NCBI GenBank assembly: GCA_025936115.1
Contig: JAICTZ010000012.1
Span: 124,001 to 188,000 of the forward strand
Reading direction: 5' to 3'
Length of the DNA: 64,000 nucleotides
DNA from: Polyangiaceae bacterium
Lineage (GTDB): Bacteria > Myxococcota_A > Polyangia > Polyangiales > Polyangiaceae
Positions 28,774 to 38,571 of the stretch are shown here, piece after piece. The notes beneath the pieces are model-generated. The model searched no databases. It worked only from the letters and a program-made list of their open reading frames with translations, and was not told the origin of the DNA. Every line of letters begins with the position of its first letter. The stretch's first letter is position 1. The translations under genes were made by a program, and so were the position numbers.

Positions 28774-30120
28774 GTGATAAAGCTTTTTACGCTCGCCGTC
28801 GCGGCGTGCGCGTTATTGCTTTCGGTGCCCGCGGCCGCTGAGGGTGCGGCAACGTCGCCGTCCGAGGCGCATTTTCGGCTGTCGAACGGGCTCGACGTGC
28901 TGATCGAAGAGAATCACCGCGAACCGCACGTGGCCGTCGTCGTAGCTTACGATGTCGGTACGCGTGACGAGCCGGCGGGGTATGCGTCGCTCGCCCACCT
29001 GGTCGAACACCTGACGTACCGACGCTCGCGACACTTGAAGGACTACGCGGGGCTCGAGCTGCTCGGCCGCGCCGGCGTCCAAACGATGAACGGTGAAACG
29101 GAAGACGATCGGACACTCTATTATGCCGTCGTGCCGTCGAGGGCGCTTCCGCTCGCTCTCTTCCTCGAGAGCGAACGCATGGGATTCACGCTCGAGGCGT
29201 TCGACGAGGCTTCGTTCGAGCACGAACGCGAGGTCGTCCGCGCCGAGGCGCAGTCGAAAGCGATGGGCTATCGGATCAGTTCGCTCATTCTCACTGCCTT
29301 GTATGGGGCGGATCATCCTTACTTCAAACCGGCGAGCCCCGTGCAGGACCTCGATGAGCTCAGGCTGCGAGATGCCCAATGGTTCTTCCAGCACGGCTAC
29401 CGTCCCGACAACGCCCACCTCATCCTCGTCGGGGACATCACGCTCGGCGCAGGACGAGCGCTCGCGGAGCGTTATTTCGGCGGGCTCGTGAACCCCGCGC
29501 TGCCGCTTGCTCCTCGCCGGCCCCTCGCCCCGGCTCGCGCCAGCGGCGTGCGTGTCACGTCCCGATCGCACGACTACACGTCGGTCGTCGTCGCCGCGTA
29601 CCGCGCCCCCGCATACGGATCGCGCGCACACCTTGCGGCTGAATTGCTGGTTCGGGCGCTCGGGACGCTCGTCACTTCGGAGCTCGTCGACCACGAGCGC
29701 CTGGCCTTGTTTTTGAAGGTGGAACTCCATGACACCGCCGTCGACTCGCAGTTCCTGTTCGAGACCTCCCCGCGCCAGGGCGTTTCCCTCGAGTCGCTCG
29801 AAACTGCCCTGGGGCAGGTGCTTGCCAAGCTGACGCCCGAACGCCTCGCTTCCGTCCTTCACGAAGCGCGCTCTGCGCTGCTCGAACAGGAGTGGATGAC
29901 GCTCGAAGACCCGCTCGCACGCGCCCGCGCTCACGTCGAAGCGCTGGCGTTCGACGGTCGTCCGTACGACGCCGAGCAACGCATCCATGCGCTGCTCGGC
30001 CTGACGGAGGCCGATCTCACGCCCCTGCTCGAGAGCTTCTCGAGGCCGCTGGTCGTCGTCGACACGCTGCACGACGGCAGTGTTGGTGACGCGGGAGTCA
30101 TCGAGGTGACGACGCCATGA
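28774..30120 (+). CDS. M16-family zinc peptidase (active subunit)
   Basis: 448 residues from a GTG preceded by CCCAGGG. A Sec signal is visible (LAVAACALLLSVPAAAEG), so the protein acts in the periplasm or outside. The inverted zinc motif is intact: HLVEH at residues 75-79, with the distal Glu in FEHEREVVRAEAQSKAMGY. A second, inactive-type M16 domain makes up the C-terminal half (VRVTSRSHDYTSVVVAAYRA). The gene overlaps the next M16 gene by four bases. Such pairs form heterodimers in which one subunit is catalytic. Confidence 0.88.
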   Translation: MIKLFTLAVAACALLLSVPAAAEGAATSPSEAHFRLSNGLDVLIEENHREPHVAVVVAYDVGTRDEPAGYASLAHLVEHLTYRRSRHLKDYAGLELLGRAGVQTMNGETEDDRTLYYAVVPSRALPLALFLESERMGFTLEAFDEASFEHEREVVRAEAQSKAMGYRISSLILTALYGADHPYFKPASPVQDLDELRLRDAQWFFQHGYRPDNAHLILVGDITLGAGRALAERYFGGLVNPALPLAPRRPLAPARASGVRVTSRSHDYTSVVVAAYRAPAYGSRAHLAAELLVRALGTLVTSELVDHERLALFLKVELHDTAVDSQFLFETSPRQGVSLESLETALGQVLAKLTPERLASVLHEARSALLEQEWMTLEDPLARARAHVEALAFDGRPYDAEQRIHALLGLTEADLTPLLESFSRPLVVVDTLHDGSVGDAGVIEVTTP

Positions 30121-31565
30121 TGCGGAAGCTCGCGGCCTGCGCGGTTTTGGCGGCCTGCAGCCAGCGTCCCGCGCTGCCTGCCCCGACGCTCCCCCTCACA
30201 CCGAGTCCGGACGCGACGTTCCGGGCGCAGCCGCCCCCGGTCGAAGTCACTCCGCTGACTCCGCCGGAAGTGCGTTCCGCCGAGCTTGCGAACGGCATGC
30301 GGATCTTGGTCGTCGAGCGGCCGGCCCTGCCGCTGGTCTCGCTCGCTTGGGCGAGCCAGTCTGCACGGGATAGCCCAGCCCTGCACGAAAGAGGGCTTGC
30401 CGCGCTGACGGCGCGCGCGCTCACCCAAGGTACGGAGCTCACGGACGGACGCGTGCTCGCCCACCTTCGCATCAACGGCGAGTCCCCCGCGATCTCGGTC
30501 GGAGAGGACGGTACCATCCTGCGCGTCCACACGCCCGCCGCGGGCCTGAGTGTGGCAGTCGAGATCCTGGCCGCCACGGTGCGCCGTCCGAAGTTTACGC
30601 CCCAGGGGATTCAGGTTGCGCGCGCCGACCAGCTCGAGACGATGCTCTGGCACTCGCTCCACGTGGATCGCGAGCTCAGGGCGGCCGCACTCTTGGCGCT
30701 GTTCGGCCCCGAGCATCCTCCCGTCACACCGTTCGGCAGGCACGCGGACGTGCTGAGCTTCACGCAGGCCGCGGTATCGCAGTTCCACGCCGCGCACTAC
30801 GGCCCGGACAACAGCGCGCTCGTCGCCGTCGGCGCCGTGAACTTGGAGCAAATCGTCGAGCTGGCGCAGCGTGACTTCGGCGATTGGCCGCGGAGCGAGG
30901 CACCGGCCCCGGTGGCTGCTCGGCCGGCACCCCTCGCCAGCTGGAGGCCCGTCCAAGGGCTCGCCGGTGGCGGAGATCAAGCTCGATTCGCCGTGGCCCT
31001 CCCGTGTCCTCCGCCGGGTGGCACACCCGAAGCCGACTTCGATCTGCTGGCGATGGTGCTCGCGAATTTGCCGCTTTCACGCGCCACGCGCCTCCTCCGC
31101 CACGAGGAAGGCATTGCGTACGCCATCACCGCCAGGTGCGAGCAGACCGGCAATCGCGGCATGTTTTGGGTCGAATTCGGGGTCGAGCCTCAGCACGGTG
31201 GCCACGCGCTCGCGCTCGTGCTCGACCAAATGCAGCGTTTGCGCACCGAAGGCGTGCCGTCACGCGAGCTCGACCTCGCGAAGATTCAATTGCTCGGTCA
31301 CTTCGGCGGTGCGCTCTCGACCAACGAAGGCATCATGAAGATTGTGACCACCGGCTTCCTGCGCAGACAACCTCCGGACGACTTCGCGCGTTGGATCGAA
31401 AATGTGCAGACCGCGACGAGCTCCCGCATCCGCGAGACCGCAAAGCACTACTTCACTGGGCGCGTCGCCATCGCGACGTACGGCCCGCGTGACGCGATCG
31501 AGGCTGGGCTCGGGCAGTTCCAGCCCGCGGAGTGGCGGCCGCTACCCCTACAGGGCGACGACTAG
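30117..31565 (+). CDS. M16-family peptidase-like subunit lacking the zinc motif
   Basis: 482 residues, translationally coupled to the active subunit (ATGA). The N-terminus has a lipobox-like CAVLAACSQR, so it may be membrane-tethered. The region aligned with HxxEH reads GLAALTARALTQGTELTDGR, which lacks both histidines and the glutamate, so the subunit should be non-catalytic and substrate-binding. The conserved late block RATRLLRHEEGIAYAITARC, the R/Y substrate-clamping region of M16 proteins, is present. Confidence 0.85.
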   Translation: MMRKLAACAVLAACSQRPALPAPTLPLTPSPDATFRAQPPPVEVTPLTPPEVRSAELANGMRILVVERPALPLVSLAWASQSARDSPALHERGLAALTARALTQGTELTDGRVLAHLRINGESPAISVGEDGTILRVHTPAAGLSVAVEILAATVRRPKFTPQGIQVARADQLETMLWHSLHVDRELRAAALLALFGPEHPPVTPFGRHADVLSFTQAAVSQFHAAHYGPDNSALVAVGAVNLEQIVELAQRDFGDWPRSEAPAPVAARPAPLASWRPVQGLAGGGDQARFAVALPCPPPGGTPEADFDLLAMVLANLPLSRATRLLRHEEGIAYAITARCEQTGNRGMFWVEFGVEPQHGGHALALVLDQMQRLRTEGVPSRELDLAKIQLLGHFGGALSTNEGIMKIVTTGFLRRQPPDDFARWIENVQTATSSRIRETAKHYFTGRVAIATYGPRDAIEAGLGQFQPAEWRPLPLQGDD

Positions 31566-31566
31566 G

Positions 31567-32927
31567 ACTCTCGCGGGAGAGGCGGCAGCCCGGGCCGCGG
31601 AATTTGCGGAACGTGGTTCGGGGAGTGTTCACGCCCGCCCGGCCGTGCTCTCGACCGTGACCCCCGCAGGGGTCAAAGGCGTCCTCGTGTGTGCGACGAG
31701 CTACAATAATGCGATCTACTGCAACAGCCGCGTCGGCACGGGAACTTGGGCGGGCTGGCACGTCATCGCGCCACCGCCTGGCGTCACCCTGGGCGCGTCT
31801 GGCCCATCACTAGCGGCCTTCACGGACAGTAGTCTTGGTGGACGCTGGCAGTTGCTCGCAGCTAGGCAGACGGGAGGGGACTGTGCCAACTGTGTCTGGG
31901 TCCAATCCATGGATCCGCACGGCACGTTCAAATGGACCCTGGTTCCCAATAGCGGCGTAGCGAACGGGTTCAATGGTGATTTGAACCTGGTGCAGTCGTA
32001 TCACGACGTATTCCTCGTCGCGTCCGGCGGCGGAAATCCGAGCTATTCGGTCTCCTACACGCAAGCATATGAAGACGGCACGTTCCTGCACTCGGGGTCG
32101 TGGACGCCCTGGAAGCCCGTGCCCGGAGTGTTCAATGCTCCCATCACGGCGACGGGGAGCCTCGAGGGCGTGCTCTTAGCGGGTGTCGGGACCGATGGAG
32201 TCGCGTACACGCTGGACCTTCGAGGCGAAACCACCTGGCGTCCCTTCATGGCCGGATCTTTCGGCGACTCGCCGGCGGCCTACTGGCCAACGCCGAGGTG
32301 GGACGTGCCTGCTGACATCATGATGGTCGGCATGGGGTCAGATCACGTCGAATACGAAGGCGAATTGACCGCTGGGCGCACCGTGTTGAACGGCTGGTTC
32401 GCAACCAGCGGGGGGACGTTCCTGACGAGCCCCGTCATGTCGGCGGCCGTGGCTCAGACTCACGTGGACATGGCCGCGCTCGCGAACACCCAGCTCGTCG
32501 TGGTCAGCAGCTGGGACTTGGCGTCGCCGTCGTGCGCCGACGGAACGGTCGAGCAACGTTTCGGTAACCACATGGTCGGCTGCAGCGGGGCCGTGACCTG
32601 GCCGCAGAGAATCTCCTTGTGCGGGAGCGGGAGCCGCGTGTGCGTGCCGACGAATGGACGATGTATTTTAGCGCGGTTCCCACCCACGACTATTGGACGG
32701 ACGAGAACCTGCGTTACACTGGAGCCCCTGGCGCCTGCGCTGTGTCCAGCACGGACGGTAACCTCTGCACCCCCGACCAACCGATGCGCGTTTGCACGGC
32801 CACCGGAAGTGATCCGGAGGGCAATCGCTGCAATTGGACGGGTTGCGGCTTTCAGCAAACTTCCAATGATTACTTCGGCGGCTGTGACGGCAACACCACG
32901 GCGGGCACGCTCTGCTGCTCGCTCTAG
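31567..32927 (+). pseudogene. Frameshifted, 5'-truncated Cys-rich secreted protein
   Basis: From about 31590 the frame encodes a beta-propeller-like region (GVLVCATSYNNAIYCNSRVG, YTLDLRGETTWRPFMAGSFG) reaching VGCSGAVTWPQRISLCGSG and RVC. From about 32645 the family continuation appears in the next frame: RADEWTMYFSAVPTHDYWTD, then CNWTGCGFQ and NTTAGTLCCSL with stop at 32925-32927. Joining the frames needs one extra base near 32641-32645. The joined C-terminus fits a myxobacterial Cys-rich domain with typical CxWTGC and TTAGxLCC motifs. No start codon or signal peptide is visible after the M16 stop at 31565, so the 5' end also seems lost. Confidence 0.65.
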
Positions 32928-32947
32928 CACGACGTAGCGGAAAGAAT

Positions 32948-33004: not shown

Positions 33005-35389
33005 TCAGAAGTAGTAGTCCCAAAGTTGCGTGGTGGCGTTGTTTGCGTCGCAGCTCGCGTCCACGACCGTGTTGCCGGGATCAGCCGGGCTCGTGGTGGT
33101 CAAGCAGCCCCCACCGATCGCGTGAATGACGCCGCTTAAGCTGAATTGAGAATTGAGGCCAGGCGTGCTCGAGCAATCGTTCCACAGAATGATGGGATTG
33201 CCTGAGGTCGTCGTGCCCGATTGGACGTTCGCGCACAAGCCCGTGTTGTTCGAGAGCGTGAGCCGGCCGCTGCCAGGCACGGAAAAGCGCTGCTTCGTGT
33301 CGCTGGCGTTGCAGGTCGCGAGGGTCAGCGCCTGCCCGAGCGCACCGGTCGAAGTGGTCGCTGCGACGCAGCTATTGGTGCCGCTCAGCCGAATCTGATC
33401 GTTCCTTAGCCCGCCGACCGGATGGAAGAAGTCCCACAGTTGTCCGCTTCCGCCAGCGCAGGCTTCGAGTCGCAGGCTGGTGCCGACGGCTTGCACGCAC
33501 ATGTTGCCCATCGCGCGCCATTCGACGCCGGTCGTGGTGAACCGCTCGTTCGCGGCCGTCGCGCTGCACGTGGCGCTCACGAGTGGGTTGCCCACGGCGC
33601 TGTTCGTCACGTTCAGGCAGCGTGAGTTGGCAGTCGTTTGGAAAGGCTCGTTCGCCGCGCCCGGGCGCGACCACGTGTCGTTCCAAGCGCCGCGACATGG
33701 GTACCCGACGATGGGCGTCCCGAGCGTGGTCGAAGCGTTCTGAACGTTGGCGCACTGGCCGCGGTAGCCGACGAGCGAACCGGTATACTTCCGACCGTAT
33801 GCTTTTTGCGCGCCGAGGACGTCCCAGGCCGAGAGCCCGTGGACGCTTGGCTTCGAGACACAATACTGCATGAGTGAAGACGGATCGGGTGACGTGCTCA
33901 GGTTGCTTCCCGCGATGTTGTTCGGCACTTGCCAAATCTGCCCGCCGCCGCCGGCGCAATCGAGGAGTTCCAGCTGGGTGCCGTTCGTCGTCGACGTGTT
34001 CGGATCGTTCAGGCAGCGGCCCGATTGAGGATTTTTAATCGTGCCGTCGTTCTGGATCGCCCAGATTTGACTCGCGCTCCCGGTACAAGCGTCGATTTCA
34101 ATCAGAGAATGATTGGCCGTGCCGTTGCCCGCGACGGTGAGGCATTTGCCTGCGACCCGCAGCGTGCCGTCGAGCGTGAGCGTCGAATTTTGGACGCTGT
34201 AGCCTTGGATGAAACTCTGCGAATCGCCCCGGTTGCAGTCGTACAGCTGAACAGCGGTTCCGTCGGTCGTGCTGTCCGCGCGTACGTCGACGCACTTGTT
34301 CGAATGCGATTGCAGTTGAATGGGGTTGCCCGGATAGGACCAGTGCTGGTTCGAGCCCGAATTGCACGTGTACACCTGAAGCTGTAGTCCGCTCTGGCCG
34401 GAGGGCACGTCCAAGCACAGGCCCGTGCTCGGGTTGGTGAGGTGGCGGTCGCTCGTCAGTGACCACTGCTGGTTCGAGCCGCCGTTGCAGCTGTAGAGCT
34501 GAACCTTCGTGCCGCTGCCGATCGGGCCAGCGCCGAAAATGTCGAGGCACTTGCCGTAAGCTCTCAGCGTACCGTCGAGCTGCGAGCCGCTCCAACCCTG
34601 CTGCCAATCCTGCTTGGTCGAGCCGTCACACGCAGCGACCTGAACCGCCGTGCCGTCCGGCATGGTCGAACCGTCGCTGTTGCCGCCGACCACCTCCAGA
34701 CACTGGAGGCCGAGGCCTTCGACGGTGATGGGGCCCGAGCCGCACTTCCAGCCCGTCCAATCGGGGCGTTCCCATTCGTGCTCGAAGCCGAGGGCGTGGC
34801 CGAATTCGTGCGGAATGTTGCTGCTCTCCGGATCGGTCGTCGTCAGCGCGGCGTCCCAATTGATCGAGATGTGCTCCGGTATGGTCGTCCGCTTGCCGAG
34901 CGGTGGGTCCGTCACGTCGCCGTCGCCGAAGTGCACCATCATCCACCCGGCGAAGTTACTCTCGACGTGCATGTTGGTTGCCGGATCGACGGCGCAAAAG
35001 CTCCAATTGACGAACTCTATGTTCGCGTAGCGCATCCAGGTGTTCTCGACCGCATGACGCACGAGGGGGATGAGCACCGACGGGGAGTACGTGTGGCCGT
35101 CGTCTGCTTGCGATTTGCCGTCGCAGTCGGTCGTGTCGGTCTGACCCGCACAGCGCACCGAGCCGTTCGACTGCAAAATCGGGCGCCGCGTGAAGCAGAC
35201 CGGGATGGTCGCCTGCGTGCCGACGACGCCGTTGTTGTTCCAGAGCGTTGTGCCGCTGGCGACGAACAAAGCTTCCGAGGCGCTTCCTAGCTCCGGCTGC
35301 TCAGCGGGGTCACCGCCAGAGCAAGCGCAAAGCATCACCGCGGCGGGCAGCCATCGTGCTCGCCGGGTGCACAAAATCGTTTCGATCAT
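33005..35389 (-). CDS. Metzincin-type zinc protease interrupted by ricin-type lectin trefoils
   Basis: 794 residues from the ATG at 35389, with GGGAAC upstream. Signal with lipobox-like MLCACSGGDP. The zinc site HEFGHALGFEH is at residues 194-204. The Met-turn and closing helix of the same domain (SLMQY at 505-509, LSAWDVLGAQKAYG at 519-532) appear only about 300 residues later. Between them lie two ricin-B-type trefoils with six QxW/QxF repeats (QDW, QQW, QHW, QSF, QIW, QIW, residues 221-490). About two more trefoils follow to the C-terminus, ending QLWDYYF. The protein should be a carbohydrate-targeted secreted protease. A near-consensus sigma-54 promoter lies upstream. A frame extending to 37048 is antisense shadow. 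Confidence 0.85.
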   Translation of the reverse strand: MIETILCTRRARWLPAAVMLCACSGGDPAEQPELGSASEALFVASGTTLWNNNGVVGTQATIPVCFTRRPILQSNGSVRCAGQTDTTDCDGKSQADDGHTYSPSVLIPLVRHAVENTWMRYANIEFVNWSFCAVDPATNMHVESNFAGWMMVHFGDGDVTDPPLGKRTTIPEHISINWDAALTTTDPESSNIPHEFGHALGFEHEWERPDWTGWKCGSGPITVEGLGLQCLEVVGGNSDGSTMPDGTAVQVAACDGSTKQDWQQGWSGSQLDGTLRAYGKCLDIFGAGPIGSGTKVQLYSCNGGSNQQWSLTSDRHLTNPSTGLCLDVPSGQSGLQLQVYTCNSGSNQHWSYPGNPIQLQSHSNKCVDVRADSTTDGTAVQLYDCNRGDSQSFIQGYSVQNSTLTLDGTLRVAGKCLTVAGNGTANHSLIEIDACTGSASQIWAIQNDGTIKNPQSGRCLNDPNTSTTNGTQLELLDCAGGGGQIWQVPNNIAGSNLSTSPDPSSLMQYCVSKPSVHGLSAWDVLGAQKAYGRKYTGSLVGYRGQCANVQNASTTLGTPIVGYPCRGAWNDTWSRPGAANEPFQTTANSRCLNVTNSAVGNPLVSATCSATAANERFTTTGVEWRAMGNMCVQAVGTSLRLEACAGGSGQLWDFFHPVGGLRNDQIRLSGTNSCVAATTSTGALGQALTLATCNASDTKQRFSVPGSGRLTLSNNTGLCANVQSGTTTSGNPIILWNDCSSTPGLNSQFSLSGVIHAIGGGCLTTTSPADPGNTVVDASCDANNATTQLWDYYF

Positions 35390-35488: not shown

Positions 35489-35504
35489 AGCAAGCCGCGT
35501 GCCG
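35489..35504 (-). promoter_or_regulatory. Sigma-54 (-24/-12) promoter for the lectin-protease gene
   Basis: Minus-strand sequence CGGCACGCGGCTTGCT fits the consensus TGGCAC-N5-TTGCW at all but the first position, with the required 10 bases between GG and GC. Transcription would start near 35479, about 90 bases before the ATG. The gene for a sigma-54 activator lies directly on the other side. Confidence 0.6.
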
Positions 35505-35674: not shown

Positions 35675-37036
35675 ATGGCGACCGGTGCAAGGCTCGAGGG
35701 TGGGGCGCGGGAGTTCGACACGGCCTCGACCGTGTCCACGGCGGGTGGCTCGTTCACCGCCACGGGCCGCGCACTGACCCGTCCCGGCCTTGTAACCATC
35801 TATCCGGTGCGGCACGACGAGGTTCCCTCGACTTGGTGCGTCAGTGGAGAGGCGTTCGTGGGGCGTAGCCGCGAGGCTCTCGTTCGCCTCGAGGACGAAC
35901 GCGTTTCGCGCCGGCACGCGAGCTTCGAACCGCGGCAAAACGGCTTCTTCGTGCGTGATCACGCCAGCCGGCACGGCACGTTCGCGGGGGGCGTGCGCGT
36001 TTCGGAGGAGGGCAGGCTCGTGCCCGTGGGGGGAGTCGTTCGCTGTGGCGACACGCTGCTGCTTTGCGTGGCGGACGTCGATCGCTTTCGCGCGCGTCCG
36101 CGCCGCAGCGACGGAGCGCGACTTGGTCTCTCCGAGACCATGCTCGCTGGGCCCGACCTCGCGGCGGTTTGGGATGAGGCCGCGCGGGCCGCGTCTCTCG
36201 GGGAGCCCGTCTTGATTGTGGGTGAGAGCGGCAGCGGTAAGGAATGCGTCGCGCGGATGCTGCATGCGGCGCGCGACGTGCCCGGGCCGTTCGTCGGCAT
36301 CAACGTGAGCGCCATACCCGAGCCGCTCTTCGAATCGGAGCTCTTCGGACACGAGCGTGGCGCGTTCACCGGCGCCGTCAGCGCGAATCTCGGCACGTTC
36401 CGCGAGGCCGAGCGCGGCGTCCTCTTTCTCGACGAGGTCGGCGACCTGAAGCTCGAGGTACAGGCCAAGTTGCTCCGCGCGCTCGATCGGTACGAAATTC
36501 GGCCACTCGGCGCGCGGACAGGCGTGCGCGTGAACACGCACGTCGTGAGCGCCACGAGCCGCGATCTGAAGCGCGCCTGTGACGAGCGAGCCTTTCGCAC
36601 TGACCTTTACTATCGTCTCGCCGGCATCGTGATCCGGGTGCCGCCGCTGAGTGAACGTCCGGGCGACGTCCTGTTGCTCGCGAACGAAGTCCTGCGCCAG
36701 CGGTCTTCTTCCTTGAAGCTCTCCGCCGACGCCGCGGAACGCTTGGCCCTGGGACGCTGGGAGGGCAACGCTCGGCAGCTCCGGTACGCGCTCGCGCGAG
36801 CGATGAGCCGCGCCGAGCTTCGTTCGGACCGCCGCATTCTGGACGAGGACCTGCCCGAGCTCACCGCTTGCACTGGCGAGGGCGAGCTGACGCTCGAGCG
36901 CGTTCAAGGCGCGCTGGACCGTTCCGGCGGCATCGCCAGCCATGCGGCGCGGTCGCTCGGCGTGTCGCGGACGACCTTCTACAAGACGATCAAGCGCCTG
37001 AACGGCCACCTTTCGCCGGCCGCGCCGAAGAAATGA
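35675..37036 (+). CDS. FHA-domain sigma-54-dependent transcriptional activator
   Basis: 453 residues. The N-terminal third holds an FHA phosphothreonine-binding domain (FVGRSREALVRLEDERVSRR plus the later SRHGT). The central AAA+ domain has Walker A VGESGSGKE, the sigma-54-contacting GAFTGA loop, Walker B VLFLDEVGDL and an arginine-finger region near RTDLYYRLAG. The C-terminal Fis-like helix-turn-helix reads SHAARSLGVSRTTFYKTIKR. There is no classical receiver domain, so a Ser/Thr kinase probably controls it, and one is encoded next with a four-base overlap. A sigma-54 promoter for the divergent protease gene is the obvious target. Confidence 0.93.
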   Translation: MATGARLEGGAREFDTASTVSTAGGSFTATGRALTRPGLVTIYPVRHDEVPSTWCVSGEAFVGRSREALVRLEDERVSRRHASFEPRQNGFFVRDHASRHGTFAGGVRVSEEGRLVPVGGVVRCGDTLLLCVADVDRFRARPRRSDGARLGLSETMLAGPDLAAVWDEAARAASLGEPVLIVGESGSGKECVARMLHAARDVPGPFVGINVSAIPEPLFESELFGHERGAFTGAVSANLGTFREAERGVLFLDEVGDLKLEVQAKLLRALDRYEIRPLGARTGVRVNTHVVSATSRDLKRACDERAFRTDLYYRLAGIVIRVPPLSERPGDVLLLANEVLRQRSSSLKLSADAAERLALGRWEGNARQLRYALARAMSRAELRSDRRILDEDLPELTACTGEGELTLERVQGALDRSGGIASHAARSLGVSRTTFYKTIKRLNGHLSPAAPKK

Positions 37037-38571
37037 CCGAGCCCGCACGGGAAATGTTCACGGATTCGTTCGGTCTCCTCGGCGCAATCGTCGATGGTCG
37101 CTACCGGGTCGAACGGATTGCGGGTCAGGGCGGCTTCGGCGTCGTGTACCGAGCGCATCATCTGGGGTTCGACTCCGCGATCGCGCTCAAGGTGCTGCGC
37201 CTGCCCGCGCCCGAGTCGGAAGCACGAAGACACGCGCGCATCGCGAGCTTCCAGCGCGAGGGGCGCATGCTGTTCGAGTTGTCGCTCCTGCACCCCGCCA
37301 TCGTGCGCGCGTTCGAAACCGGCACGCTCGTCGGCGTCGATGGTTCGGCCGTGCCGTACCTCGCTCTCGAATGGCTCGAGGGCGTTTCGCTCGAGCGCGA
37401 GCTCTGTCAGCGGCGGACGCAGCATCTAGCGCCCTTCACGCTGTCGGAGGTGTTGACGCTCCTCCGCGAGCCCGTCGCGGGACTCGCGCGCGCCCACGCT
37501 CGCGGCATCGCACACCGCGACATCAAGCCGGCGAACCTGTTCGTCAGCGAACGCGACGGTGAACAGCAGGTCAAAATCCTCGATTTCGGCATCGCCAAGC
37601 TGGTCGGAGACGCGGGCGAACCAGGCGAGCATCGCGCCGTGACACTCGCCGCGACGGGCGCTTTCACCCCGCTTTACGCCGCACCGGAACAGTGGCTCGC
37701 AGCGCTCGGCTCGACGGGACCTTGGACCGACGTGCACGCGCTCGCGCTCGTCTGTGTGGAGATGCTCACGGGTCGACCCGCCTTGGCGGGCAACGGCGGC
37801 GAACTCCAAGCCGCGTGCGTCGACGCCGCGCGCCGACCGACTCCCGCCGCCAAGGGGCTCGATCTACCGGACGCCGTGGAAGCGGTGTTCGCCCGCGCCC
37901 TCGCTCGCGAACCGCAGCAGCGCTTCGACGCTGCCGACCACTTCTGGCACGCGCTGTGCGACGCCGCCGCCTGGTCGCCGGCCGAAGGCCGCGCCTGGGT
38001 TGCGCTGACTGCTCGCCCCTTGTGCGAGGATCAGAGCGTGGAGGCCGTGGTGCGCCCGTCCAAACGTCCGAGTCCCGGCGTGTCGTCGGGGGCGACGACG
38101 ACGGCCGGTACCGCCTCGGGCACCCGGGCATCCGTGACGCCGCGCGTGAAGTCAGCTCGAAATCGTTTCCGGTTTCTGCTGCCGCTCGCCGGCCTGGCGG
38201 TTGCCAGCGTCGCTTGGGCTCTCCATAGCTTGCCGCGGGATCGGCCATCGACCGTTGTCCGGGCCGCGAGCGCGGACCCGAACGCGTCGCACGCCATTTC
38301 TACGGCGCCTGCGGTCGTCGCTCCCGCTGCCCAAACGCCGGTGCTCGCGTCCCCGCGAGCGACGCCGTTAGTGGAAGCGCGCTCGCCCCAGCGATACCCG
38401 CGGGCGTTTGCGCGTCCTCGCGCTCAGCTGAAGCCGGCGGCGCCGCTCGCGTCGAGCACGGCCGGCGCGTACCCGAGATCCACGCCGCCGGGCACCCTGC
38501 CCGATGACCTGAGCTCGATTCCAAACGTCGCATTGAACCTCGATGACCCGGCGCTCGTTGTGCGCAAATAG
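37033..38571 (+). CDS. Transmembrane Ser/Thr protein kinase
   Basis: 512 residues from the ATG at 37033 that overlaps the activator stop; the frame upstream is shadow. Hanks-type kinase: Gly-loop GQGGFGVV (31-38), Lys53 in IALKVL, catalytic loop HRDIKPANL (161-169), DFG at 184-186 and AAPEQW. The activation segment is unusually Ala/Gly-rich. After the kinase domain comes a Pro/Ser/Thr linker, one membrane helix (FRFLLPLAGLAVASVAWAL, around 380-400) and an extracytoplasmic Ala/Pro-rich tail ending DDPALVVRK. It probably phosphorylates the partner activator, whose FHA domain would then bind phosphothreonine. This is inferred from operon order. Confidence 0.93.
   Translation: MTEPAREMFTDSFGLLGAIVDGRYRVERIAGQGGFGVVYRAHHLGFDSAIALKVLRLPAPESEARRHARIASFQREGRMLFELSLLHPAIVRAFETGTLVGVDGSAVPYLALEWLEGVSLERELCQRRTQHLAPFTLSEVLTLLREPVAGLARAHARGIAHRDIKPANLFVSERDGEQQVKILDFGIAKLVGDAGEPGEHRAVTLAATGAFTPLYAAPEQWLAALGSTGPWTDVHALALVCVEMLTGRPALAGNGGELQAACVDAARRPTPAAKGLDLPDAVEAVFARALAREPQQRFDAADHFWHALCDAAAWSPAEGRAWVALTARPLCEDQSVEAVVRPSKRPSPGVSSGATTTAGTASGTRASVTPRVKSARNRFRFLLPLAGLAVASVAWALHSLPRDRPSTVVRAASADPNASHAISTAPAVVAPAAQTPVLASPRATPLVEARSPQRYPRAFARPRAQLKPAAPLASSTAGAYPRSTPPGTLPDDLSSIPNVALNLDDPALVVRK

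What the first reader, a model, noticed from the sequence alone, without database searches (positions are those of the whole stretch)
33005..35389. Ricin-type trefoils inserted inside a metzincin catalytic domain
The zinc motif HEFGHALGFEH (residues 194-204) and the parts that complete the same fold, Met-turn SLMQY (505-509) and closing helix LSAWDVLGAQKAYG (519-532), are about 300 residues apart. Six QxW/QxF repeats, or two beta-trefoils, fill the gap. More trefoils follow at the C-terminus. Metzincin domains normally have only a few dozen residues between zinc helix and Met-turn. A lectin nested in the protease loop could couple glycan binding to substrate entry.
Basis: partly seen in the sequence, partly recalled or inferred. 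Interest (0 to 1): 0.72.

Follow-up and report, generated by a model that had tools for sequence, protein, structure and literature searches.

The report
Lectin pair nested inside a metzincin
A bacterial protein-cutting enzyme appears to carry two sugar-binding modules spliced into a loop beside its active site, as well as two on its end; the layout is well supported by sequence, but what it does is a guess.

Summary
The minus-strand gene 33005-35389 encodes a 794-residue lipoprotein-like metzincin. A profile built only from relatives matches it in two pieces that nearly abut in the model (16-161 and 164-213) but lie 270 residues apart in the protein. The gap holds two complete ricin-type (CBM13-like) beta-trefoils; two more degenerate ones follow the protease domain. 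Six residues beyond the insert that are the same in 48 of 48 aligned relatives are kept, as are C510 (39 of 48) and C216 (47 of 48), a likely disulfide at the insert's base. In 110 distinct relative sequences the first zinc His and the Met-turn Met lie 38-106 residues apart; here 313. One relative (L125) has a smaller Cys-rich stretch in the same loop. AlphaFold gives the protease core and Met-turn segment good confidence but not the trefoils, and no coordinates could be measured. I read it as an active, glycan-directed protease; that step is inferred. In PAPP-A this same loop (63 residues) extends the cleft and affects substrate choice (PMC9579167). In the searches I ran I found no report of a lectin in this loop, and no second nested case. 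New variant of a known kind.

The parts
35321..35389 (-). signal peptide and lipobox-like end, residues 1-23 (..LCAC; C23 the likely lipidated Cys)
   Evidence: sequence; C23 column conserved in 90% or more of the 17 rows of A1; lipoprotein reading is inference
34742..35293 (-). metzincin domain, first part, residues 33-216, to just past the zinc motif; ends at conserved C216
   Evidence: relatives-only profile 14-158 on residues 33-216, 73.3 bits
35078..35194 (-). small extra insertion, residues about 66-104, with C80 and C89
   Evidence: long insert against the profile and in alignment A1
34778..34810 (-). zinc motif HEFGHALGFEH, residues 194-204
   Evidence: the columns are invariant in A3, but HEFGHx[LI]GF was the search pattern, so much of that invariance is by selection
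34328..34741 (-). nested trefoil T1, residues 217-354; repeats beta and gamma keep CLD..Y..NQ.W
   Evidence: Pfam; alignment to the CBM13 of 1knl
33920..34327 (-). nested trefoil T2, residues 355-490; sugar-site residues partly altered
   Evidence: Pfam best stretch 358-486; gamma repeat against 1knl; others by eye
33782..33919 (-). metzincin domain, second part, residues 491-536: Met-turn and closing helix
   Evidence: relatives-only profile 164-213 on residues 490-537, 27.5 bits; 34.3 bits for 486-540 alone
33863..33877 (-). Met-turn SLMQY, residues 505-509
33008..33781 (-). C-terminal trefoils T3 and T4, residues 537-794, sugar sites degenerate by eye
   Evidence: QxW/QxF repeats, Ricin_B_lectin six stretches in the protein
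35489..35504 (-). sigma-54 (-24/-12) promoter-like site CGGCACGCGGCTTGCT, 100 bases upstream of the ATG
   Evidence: only exact match in 64 kb, expected 0.01; pattern written after seeing the site; consensus recalled
35675..37036 (+). divergent neighbour: FHA + sigma-54 activator + Fis-type HTH regulator, candidate regulator of this gene
   Evidence: Pfam; the regulatory link is inference

Best explanation
A membrane-anchored or secreted zinc protease of the metzincin clan in which two CBM13-type beta-trefoils sit in the loop between the zinc helix and the Met-turn (the ZnM loop of PAPP-A). Shown by computation: the split protease domain, the identity of the insert, the retained catalytic and structural residues. 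Inferred: the two halves fold into one active domain; C216 and C510 clamp the base of the insert; the sugar sites of T1 (repeats beta and gamma) bind a polysaccharide or glycoprotein; and because the lectin is held by two linkers next to the cleft, glycan binding positions the active site on glycan-bearing substrates or filters what enters. The C-terminal trefoils, shared in position with several relatives, would be a second anchor.
For: Profile split 16-161 / 164-213 with two model positions between the pieces; the genome search with profile A4, which does not hold the query, reports pieces 52-166, 12-89 and 162-210 at this place (one search lists the first). Six residues after the insert, the same in 48 of 48 relatives, are kept; C216 47 of 48, C510 39 of 48, Y509 45 of 48 (48 of the 53 domain rows were used, L031, L050, L056, L057 and L067 left out). 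The insert has 12 Cys, two per repeat, which leaves C216 and C510 for each other (inference). T1 aligns to the S. lividans xylanase CBM13 (1knl, E 2.3e-24 for the pair) with CLD, Y, N and Q kept in two repeats (their role in sugar binding is recalled). Precedent in PAPP-A (passages of PMC9579167): the ZnM loop is the 63-residue stretch between zinc site and Met-turn, extends the lower part of the cleft, is tied by C612-C643 to the core just after the Met-turn, loses specificity without that disulfide, and several of its residues are needed to cut IGFBP-4; breaking any of the LNR modules, two of which are inserted in the domain, abolishes cleavage of IGFBP-4 but not IGFBP-5. AlphaFold: block means of pLDDT 75, 75, 84, 93 for residues 495-534 and 75, 93, 83 for 185-214 in job 1; 87, 69, 91, 78 for 500-539 in job 2.
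Against: Overall models are poor (mean pLDDT 48.4 and 56.9, pTM 0.48 and 0.52) and the trefoils are mostly below 60; no coordinates or PAE were available, so packing of the Met-turn on the zinc site was not measured, and both alignments given to AlphaFold already had the Met-turn in register. Foldseek: model 1 finds metzincins first but none at E 0.001 or better, TM at most 0.45 by target; model 2 finds ricin-type lectins first and no metzincin in the 50 of 504 rows shown. The Cys statistic is weak: of 132 rows 98 have both a loop Cys and a Cys after Met, 27 the loop Cys only, 1 the post-Met Cys only, 6 neither. No second protein with nested trefoils was found. No call gave activity, substrate or sugar data for this protein.
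Confidence: 0.6

Rival explanations
1. Same nested anatomy, but the trefoils are only an anchor: they hold the enzyme on a polysaccharide and do not affect catalysis or choice of substrate.
For: Several relatives carry trefoils or other repeats at the C-terminus with an ordinary loop, so anchoring does not need nesting; CBM13 modules are usually anchors (recalled).
Against: Trefoils are already present at the C-terminus of this protein; the extra pair sits in the loop by the cleft and has the better kept sugar sites (T1 against 1knl; C-terminal ones judged by eye).
Confidence: 0.3
2. The insert is a latency device: the trefoils block the cleft until cut or until glycan binds, as a built-in zymogen plug.
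For: There is no obvious pro-domain: the profile match starts at residue 35, 12 residues after the lipobox Cys. Mep72, a metzincin with C-terminal sugar-binding domains, is processed and its autolysis is slowed by alginate (passages of PMC4334185).
Against: No cleavage site was looked for or seen; relatives without the insert also show no clear pro-domain by eye.
Confidence: 0.12
3. Non-functional: the insertion broke the protease, and the gene is a relic or the protein is only a lectin.
For: Only one copy of this arrangement was found in what was searched.
Against: Zinc motif, Met-turn and the six invariant post-insert residues are intact; frame open, no stops.
Confidence: 0.07
4. Assembly chimera in the draft genome.
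For: The genome is a draft in 83 contigs with 3.36% contamination by the tool's figure; reads were not available.
Against: In-frame joins at the borders of a loop that varies in the family, similar GC across parts (0.59-0.67) and no long internal DNA repeat.
Confidence: 0.03

Closest known systems
PAPP-A (pappalysin-1)
   Same: metzincin domain with inserted modules (LNR1-2) by the cleft, and an extended zinc-site/Met-turn loop tied by a disulfide to just after the Met-turn and involved in substrate choice (passages of PMC9579167)
   Different: LNR modules are about 30 residues, not lectins, and lie above the cleft, apart from the ZnM loop; that loop is 63 residues there, about 300 here, and holds no lectin
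Mep72 of Pseudomonas aeruginosa
   Same: secreted metzincin with two sugar-binding domains (passages of PMC4334185)
   Different: the sugar-binding domains are C-terminal, not nested, and are released on export
MMP-2/MMP-9 with fibronectin type II repeats in the catalytic domain (recalled; no paper opened)
   Same: substrate-binding modules spliced into a metzincin domain
   Different: inserted before the zinc helix, not after it; not lectins
CBM13 of Streptomyces xylanases (1knl, 1isv)
   Same: best solved relatives of the nested trefoils by sequence, E 2.3e-24 and 5.8e-24
   Different: there a module of a glycoside hydrolase, not nested in a protease
Bacterial HEFGH/HEMGH metzincins with C-terminal trefoils (L003, L006, L008, L010, L125)
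   Same: same protease domain, lipobox-like start by eye, C-terminal trefoils; L003, L006 and L008 end in or near WDYYF, L010 in WDYYW, L125 in WDYHF; this protein ends in WDYYF
   Different: no lectin in the loop; L125 has 106 residues between His and Met with a Cys-rich stretch, the other four ordinary loops

Membership tests
Metzincin clan (MA(M)) | HEXXHXXGXXH zinc motif | tested here: met
   HEFGHALGFEH 194-204
Metzincin clan (MA(M)) | Met-turn after the zinc motif | tested here: met
   SLMQY aligned with the S-x-M-x-Y of relatives by a relatives-only profile, across a 270-residue insert
Metzincin clan (MA(M)) | one folded domain with Met below the zinc | tested here: inconclusive
   core and Met-turn segment confident, no coordinates; Foldseek hits to metzincins weak or absent from the rows shown
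Astacin family M12A | Pfam Astacin gathering score 22.5 | tested here: not met
   15.2 bits for this protein; relatives L024 (26.9 or 24.6), L006 (23.7) and L125 (23.1) pass. Not filed as astacin
Matrixin family M10 | Pfam Peptidase_M10 gathering score 24 | tested here: not met
   12.1 bits; of the three relatives whose scores I saw, L024 passes (27.8 or 25.4), L125 (23.9) and L006 (19.5) do not
Ricin-type lectin / CBM13 | Pfam Ricin_B_lectin with three QxW-type repeats per trefoil | tested here: met
   228.6 bits, six stretches; six repeats in the insert, one of them QSF
Ricin-type lectin / CBM13 | sugar binding | not testable with these tools
   site residues kept in T1 beta and gamma by alignment

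The most novel reading that the evidence does not exclude
The zinc-helix/Met-turn loop is a natural docking slot of this bacterial metzincin family into which whole binding modules are spliced (trefoil lectins here, a Cys-rich stretch in L125), giving proteases whose active site is steered or gated by the inserted binder: here a glycan-gated protease.
Probability: 0.3. Interest if true: 0.7.

Novelty: new variant of a known kind. Interest (0 to 1): 0.5.

Why it matters
It suggests that a metzincin can carry about 270 extra residues between two parts of its active site and still keep its conserved residues, and it marks a loop, known from PAPP-A to affect substrate choice, where nature has placed a binding module. 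Whether sugar binding controls cleavage can be tested directly.

Tried and rejected
Full-length MAFFT alignments with trefoil-bearing relatives misplace the query's Met-turn because of the insert; domain-only rows do not. For the second AlphaFold job I tried row sets by hand (3, 7) and at random (160, 500, 38 of these 500 passing) and kept one in which motifs and trefoil Cys lined up, so that alignment was chosen for being right; the rows of job 1 were 48 of 53 domains, not tried in subsets.

Searches for other nested cases. Viral contigs with the whole protein and with the insert: 5 and 3 pattern matches, no relative; phages: no match. Plasmids: 90 records, none covering 80% of the query; 14 of the 15 rows shown are actinomycetes. 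The two rows spanning residues 151-736 looked like a possible nested case; I opened one (H1): the part of its gene in the fetched stretch (1100 residues) has no HExxH and no match to the metzincin profile. H2 was not opened. Whole protein in 377 genomes of the phylum: 27 match, own included; of the 40 rows shown none but its own covers more than 280 residues. Profile hits that stop near the loop were fetched (4 regions, 11): L125 was the only one with a module-like stretch; L126 and L151 have loops of 76 and 79 residues; the others were cut matches or short-loop metzincin-like proteins by eye.

Idea that T1/T2 are recent copies of T3/T4 rejected: alignment scores T1-T2 211 and T3-T4 107 against 62-83 for the cross pairs. 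Where T1/T2 came from could not be told.

Full report
What is there. The minus-strand gene 33005-35389 encodes 794 residues: a signal peptide ending in a lipobox-like LCAC, the first part of a metzincin domain (to C216), two trefoils (217-490), the second part of the metzincin domain (491-536) and two further trefoils (537-794). Pfam finds Ricin_B_lectin strongly (E 2.4e-68) but the protease only below cut-off (Astacin 15.2 bits, cut-off 22.5; Matrixin 12.1, cut-off 24). By sequence, the nearest solved proteins to residues 51-214 are weak hits to the bacterial astacin myroilysin (E 0.022-0.027).

Is it one protease domain? From 51 of those 53 loci I cut 53 metzincin domains (L064 and L066 gave none, L075 three) and built a profile without the query. 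It matches the query in two pieces, model 16-161 on residues 35-219 (70.9 bits) and 164-213 on 490-537 (27.5 bits); the insert alone gave no reported match, the C-terminal trefoils -0.8 bits. Residues 486-540 alone score 34.3 bits, against 5.5 for the best of 2000 shuffles and -0.2 for the best of 139 windows of the trefoil parts. The genome search with alignment A4 (29 relatives) splits the query in the same place.

How unusual. Of 147 profile-matched rows from the fetched loci, 15 lacked the zinc His or the Met in the aligned column and were dropped; the remaining 132 rows are 110 distinct aligned sequences with 38-106 residues from first His to Met, median 44; the query has 313. These are loci that I fetched, not all members: the class search matched 151 of 317 genomes and the phylum search 126 of 377 (the two overlap); 30 loci each were delivered and the match lists were cut. 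No other nested trefoils were seen. L125 (106 residues) has a Cys-rich stretch in the same loop with only sub-threshold Pfam matches (DUF7107 15.4, Dickkopf_N 15.3, EB 11.0), and trefoils at its C-terminus.

What the insert is. Its best solved relatives are CBM13 modules of Streptomyces xylanases (1knl, E 2.3e-24). In T1 the beta and gamma repeats keep the Asp of CLD, the Tyr before the second Cys and the Asn-Gln of NQxW, as in 1knl; T2 gamma has changed the Asp, the aromatic and the Asn. That these residues hold the sugar is recalled. T3/T4 look more degenerate by eye. By alignment score T1-T2 (211) and T3-T4 (107) are the closest pairs; cross pairs score 62-83.

Structure. Job 1 (residues 25-794, 49 rows): mean pLDDT 48.4, pTM 0.48, but 75-93 by block for the zinc-helix and Met-turn/closing-helix segments; Foldseek's first 40 hits are metzincins (serralysins, MMPs, astacins), best E 4.3e-3, TM by target at most 0.45, rmsd 4.4-11.6. 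Job 2 (40-540, 42 rows chosen for correct alignment): 56.9 and 0.52, the same segments confident; Foldseek's best hits are ricin-type lectins (four at E 0.001 or better, TM 0.17 or less) and none of the 50 rows shown of 504 is a metzincin. So the trefoils' arrangement is unknown, and packing around the zinc was not measured.

Mechanism. I think the enzyme is active and glycan-directed. Basis: conserved residues kept and the place of the insert. In PAPP-A the stretch between zinc site and Met-turn (ZnM loop, 63 residues) extends the lower part of the cleft; it is tied by C612-C643 to the core just after the Met-turn, and without that disulfide the enzyme cuts itself at other residues; several loop residues are needed to cleave IGFBP-4 (passages of PMC9579167). 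C216 and C510 here would be a like-placed pair. None of this is shown for the present protein; plain anchoring is the main rival.

Regulation lead. An exact -24/-12-like site occurs once in the window (expected 0.01; with one mismatch allowed still 1 found against 2.05 expected), 100 bases upstream of the ATG, in the gap to a divergent gene with FHA, sigma-54 activator and Fis-type HTH domains, followed by a Ser/Thr kinase gene. The pattern was written after I had seen the site, so the chance figure is optimistic.

Literature. Six searches (listings and starts of abstracts, with no paper) and passages of PMC9579167, PMC4334185, PMC9848320 and PMC7744527 showed no trefoil or lectin in the zinc-helix/Met-turn loop of a metzincin. 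PMC9848320 lists RICIN among domains in its astacin section without, in the passages seen, saying that it is nested. The library lacks most subscription journals, so this is no proof of absence.

Verdict. New variant of a known kind, interest 0.5.

Noticed in passing
window 35489-35504 (-) and 35675-38571 (+): Sigma-54 promoter-like site between the protease gene and a divergent FHA/sigma-54 activator gene that is followed by a Ser/Thr kinase gene: a possible regulatory unit.
   Followed up: partly
L125:363-2147 (-) (G081:C147): A relative with a Cys-rich stretch in the same zinc-helix/Met-turn loop (His to Met 106 residues) and trefoils at the C-terminus.
   Followed up: partly
window 31402-32937 and 32619-32927 (+): The Cys-rich end of the neighbouring gene seems by eye to lie in another frame (ending LCCSL), as if the frame changes; no Pfam match to the longer ORF.
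   Followed up: no
L128 (G000:C26:18000-21500): A second member of the family in the same genome is cut short: the profile match covers model 15-90 only and the open frame runs on into methyltransferase-like sequence, recognised by eye.
   Followed up: no
window 28774-31565 (+): Two adjacent M16 peptidase genes; the first shows HLVEH, the second scores below cut-off for the M16 domain (13.7 against 22.3) though not for M16_C.
   Followed up: no
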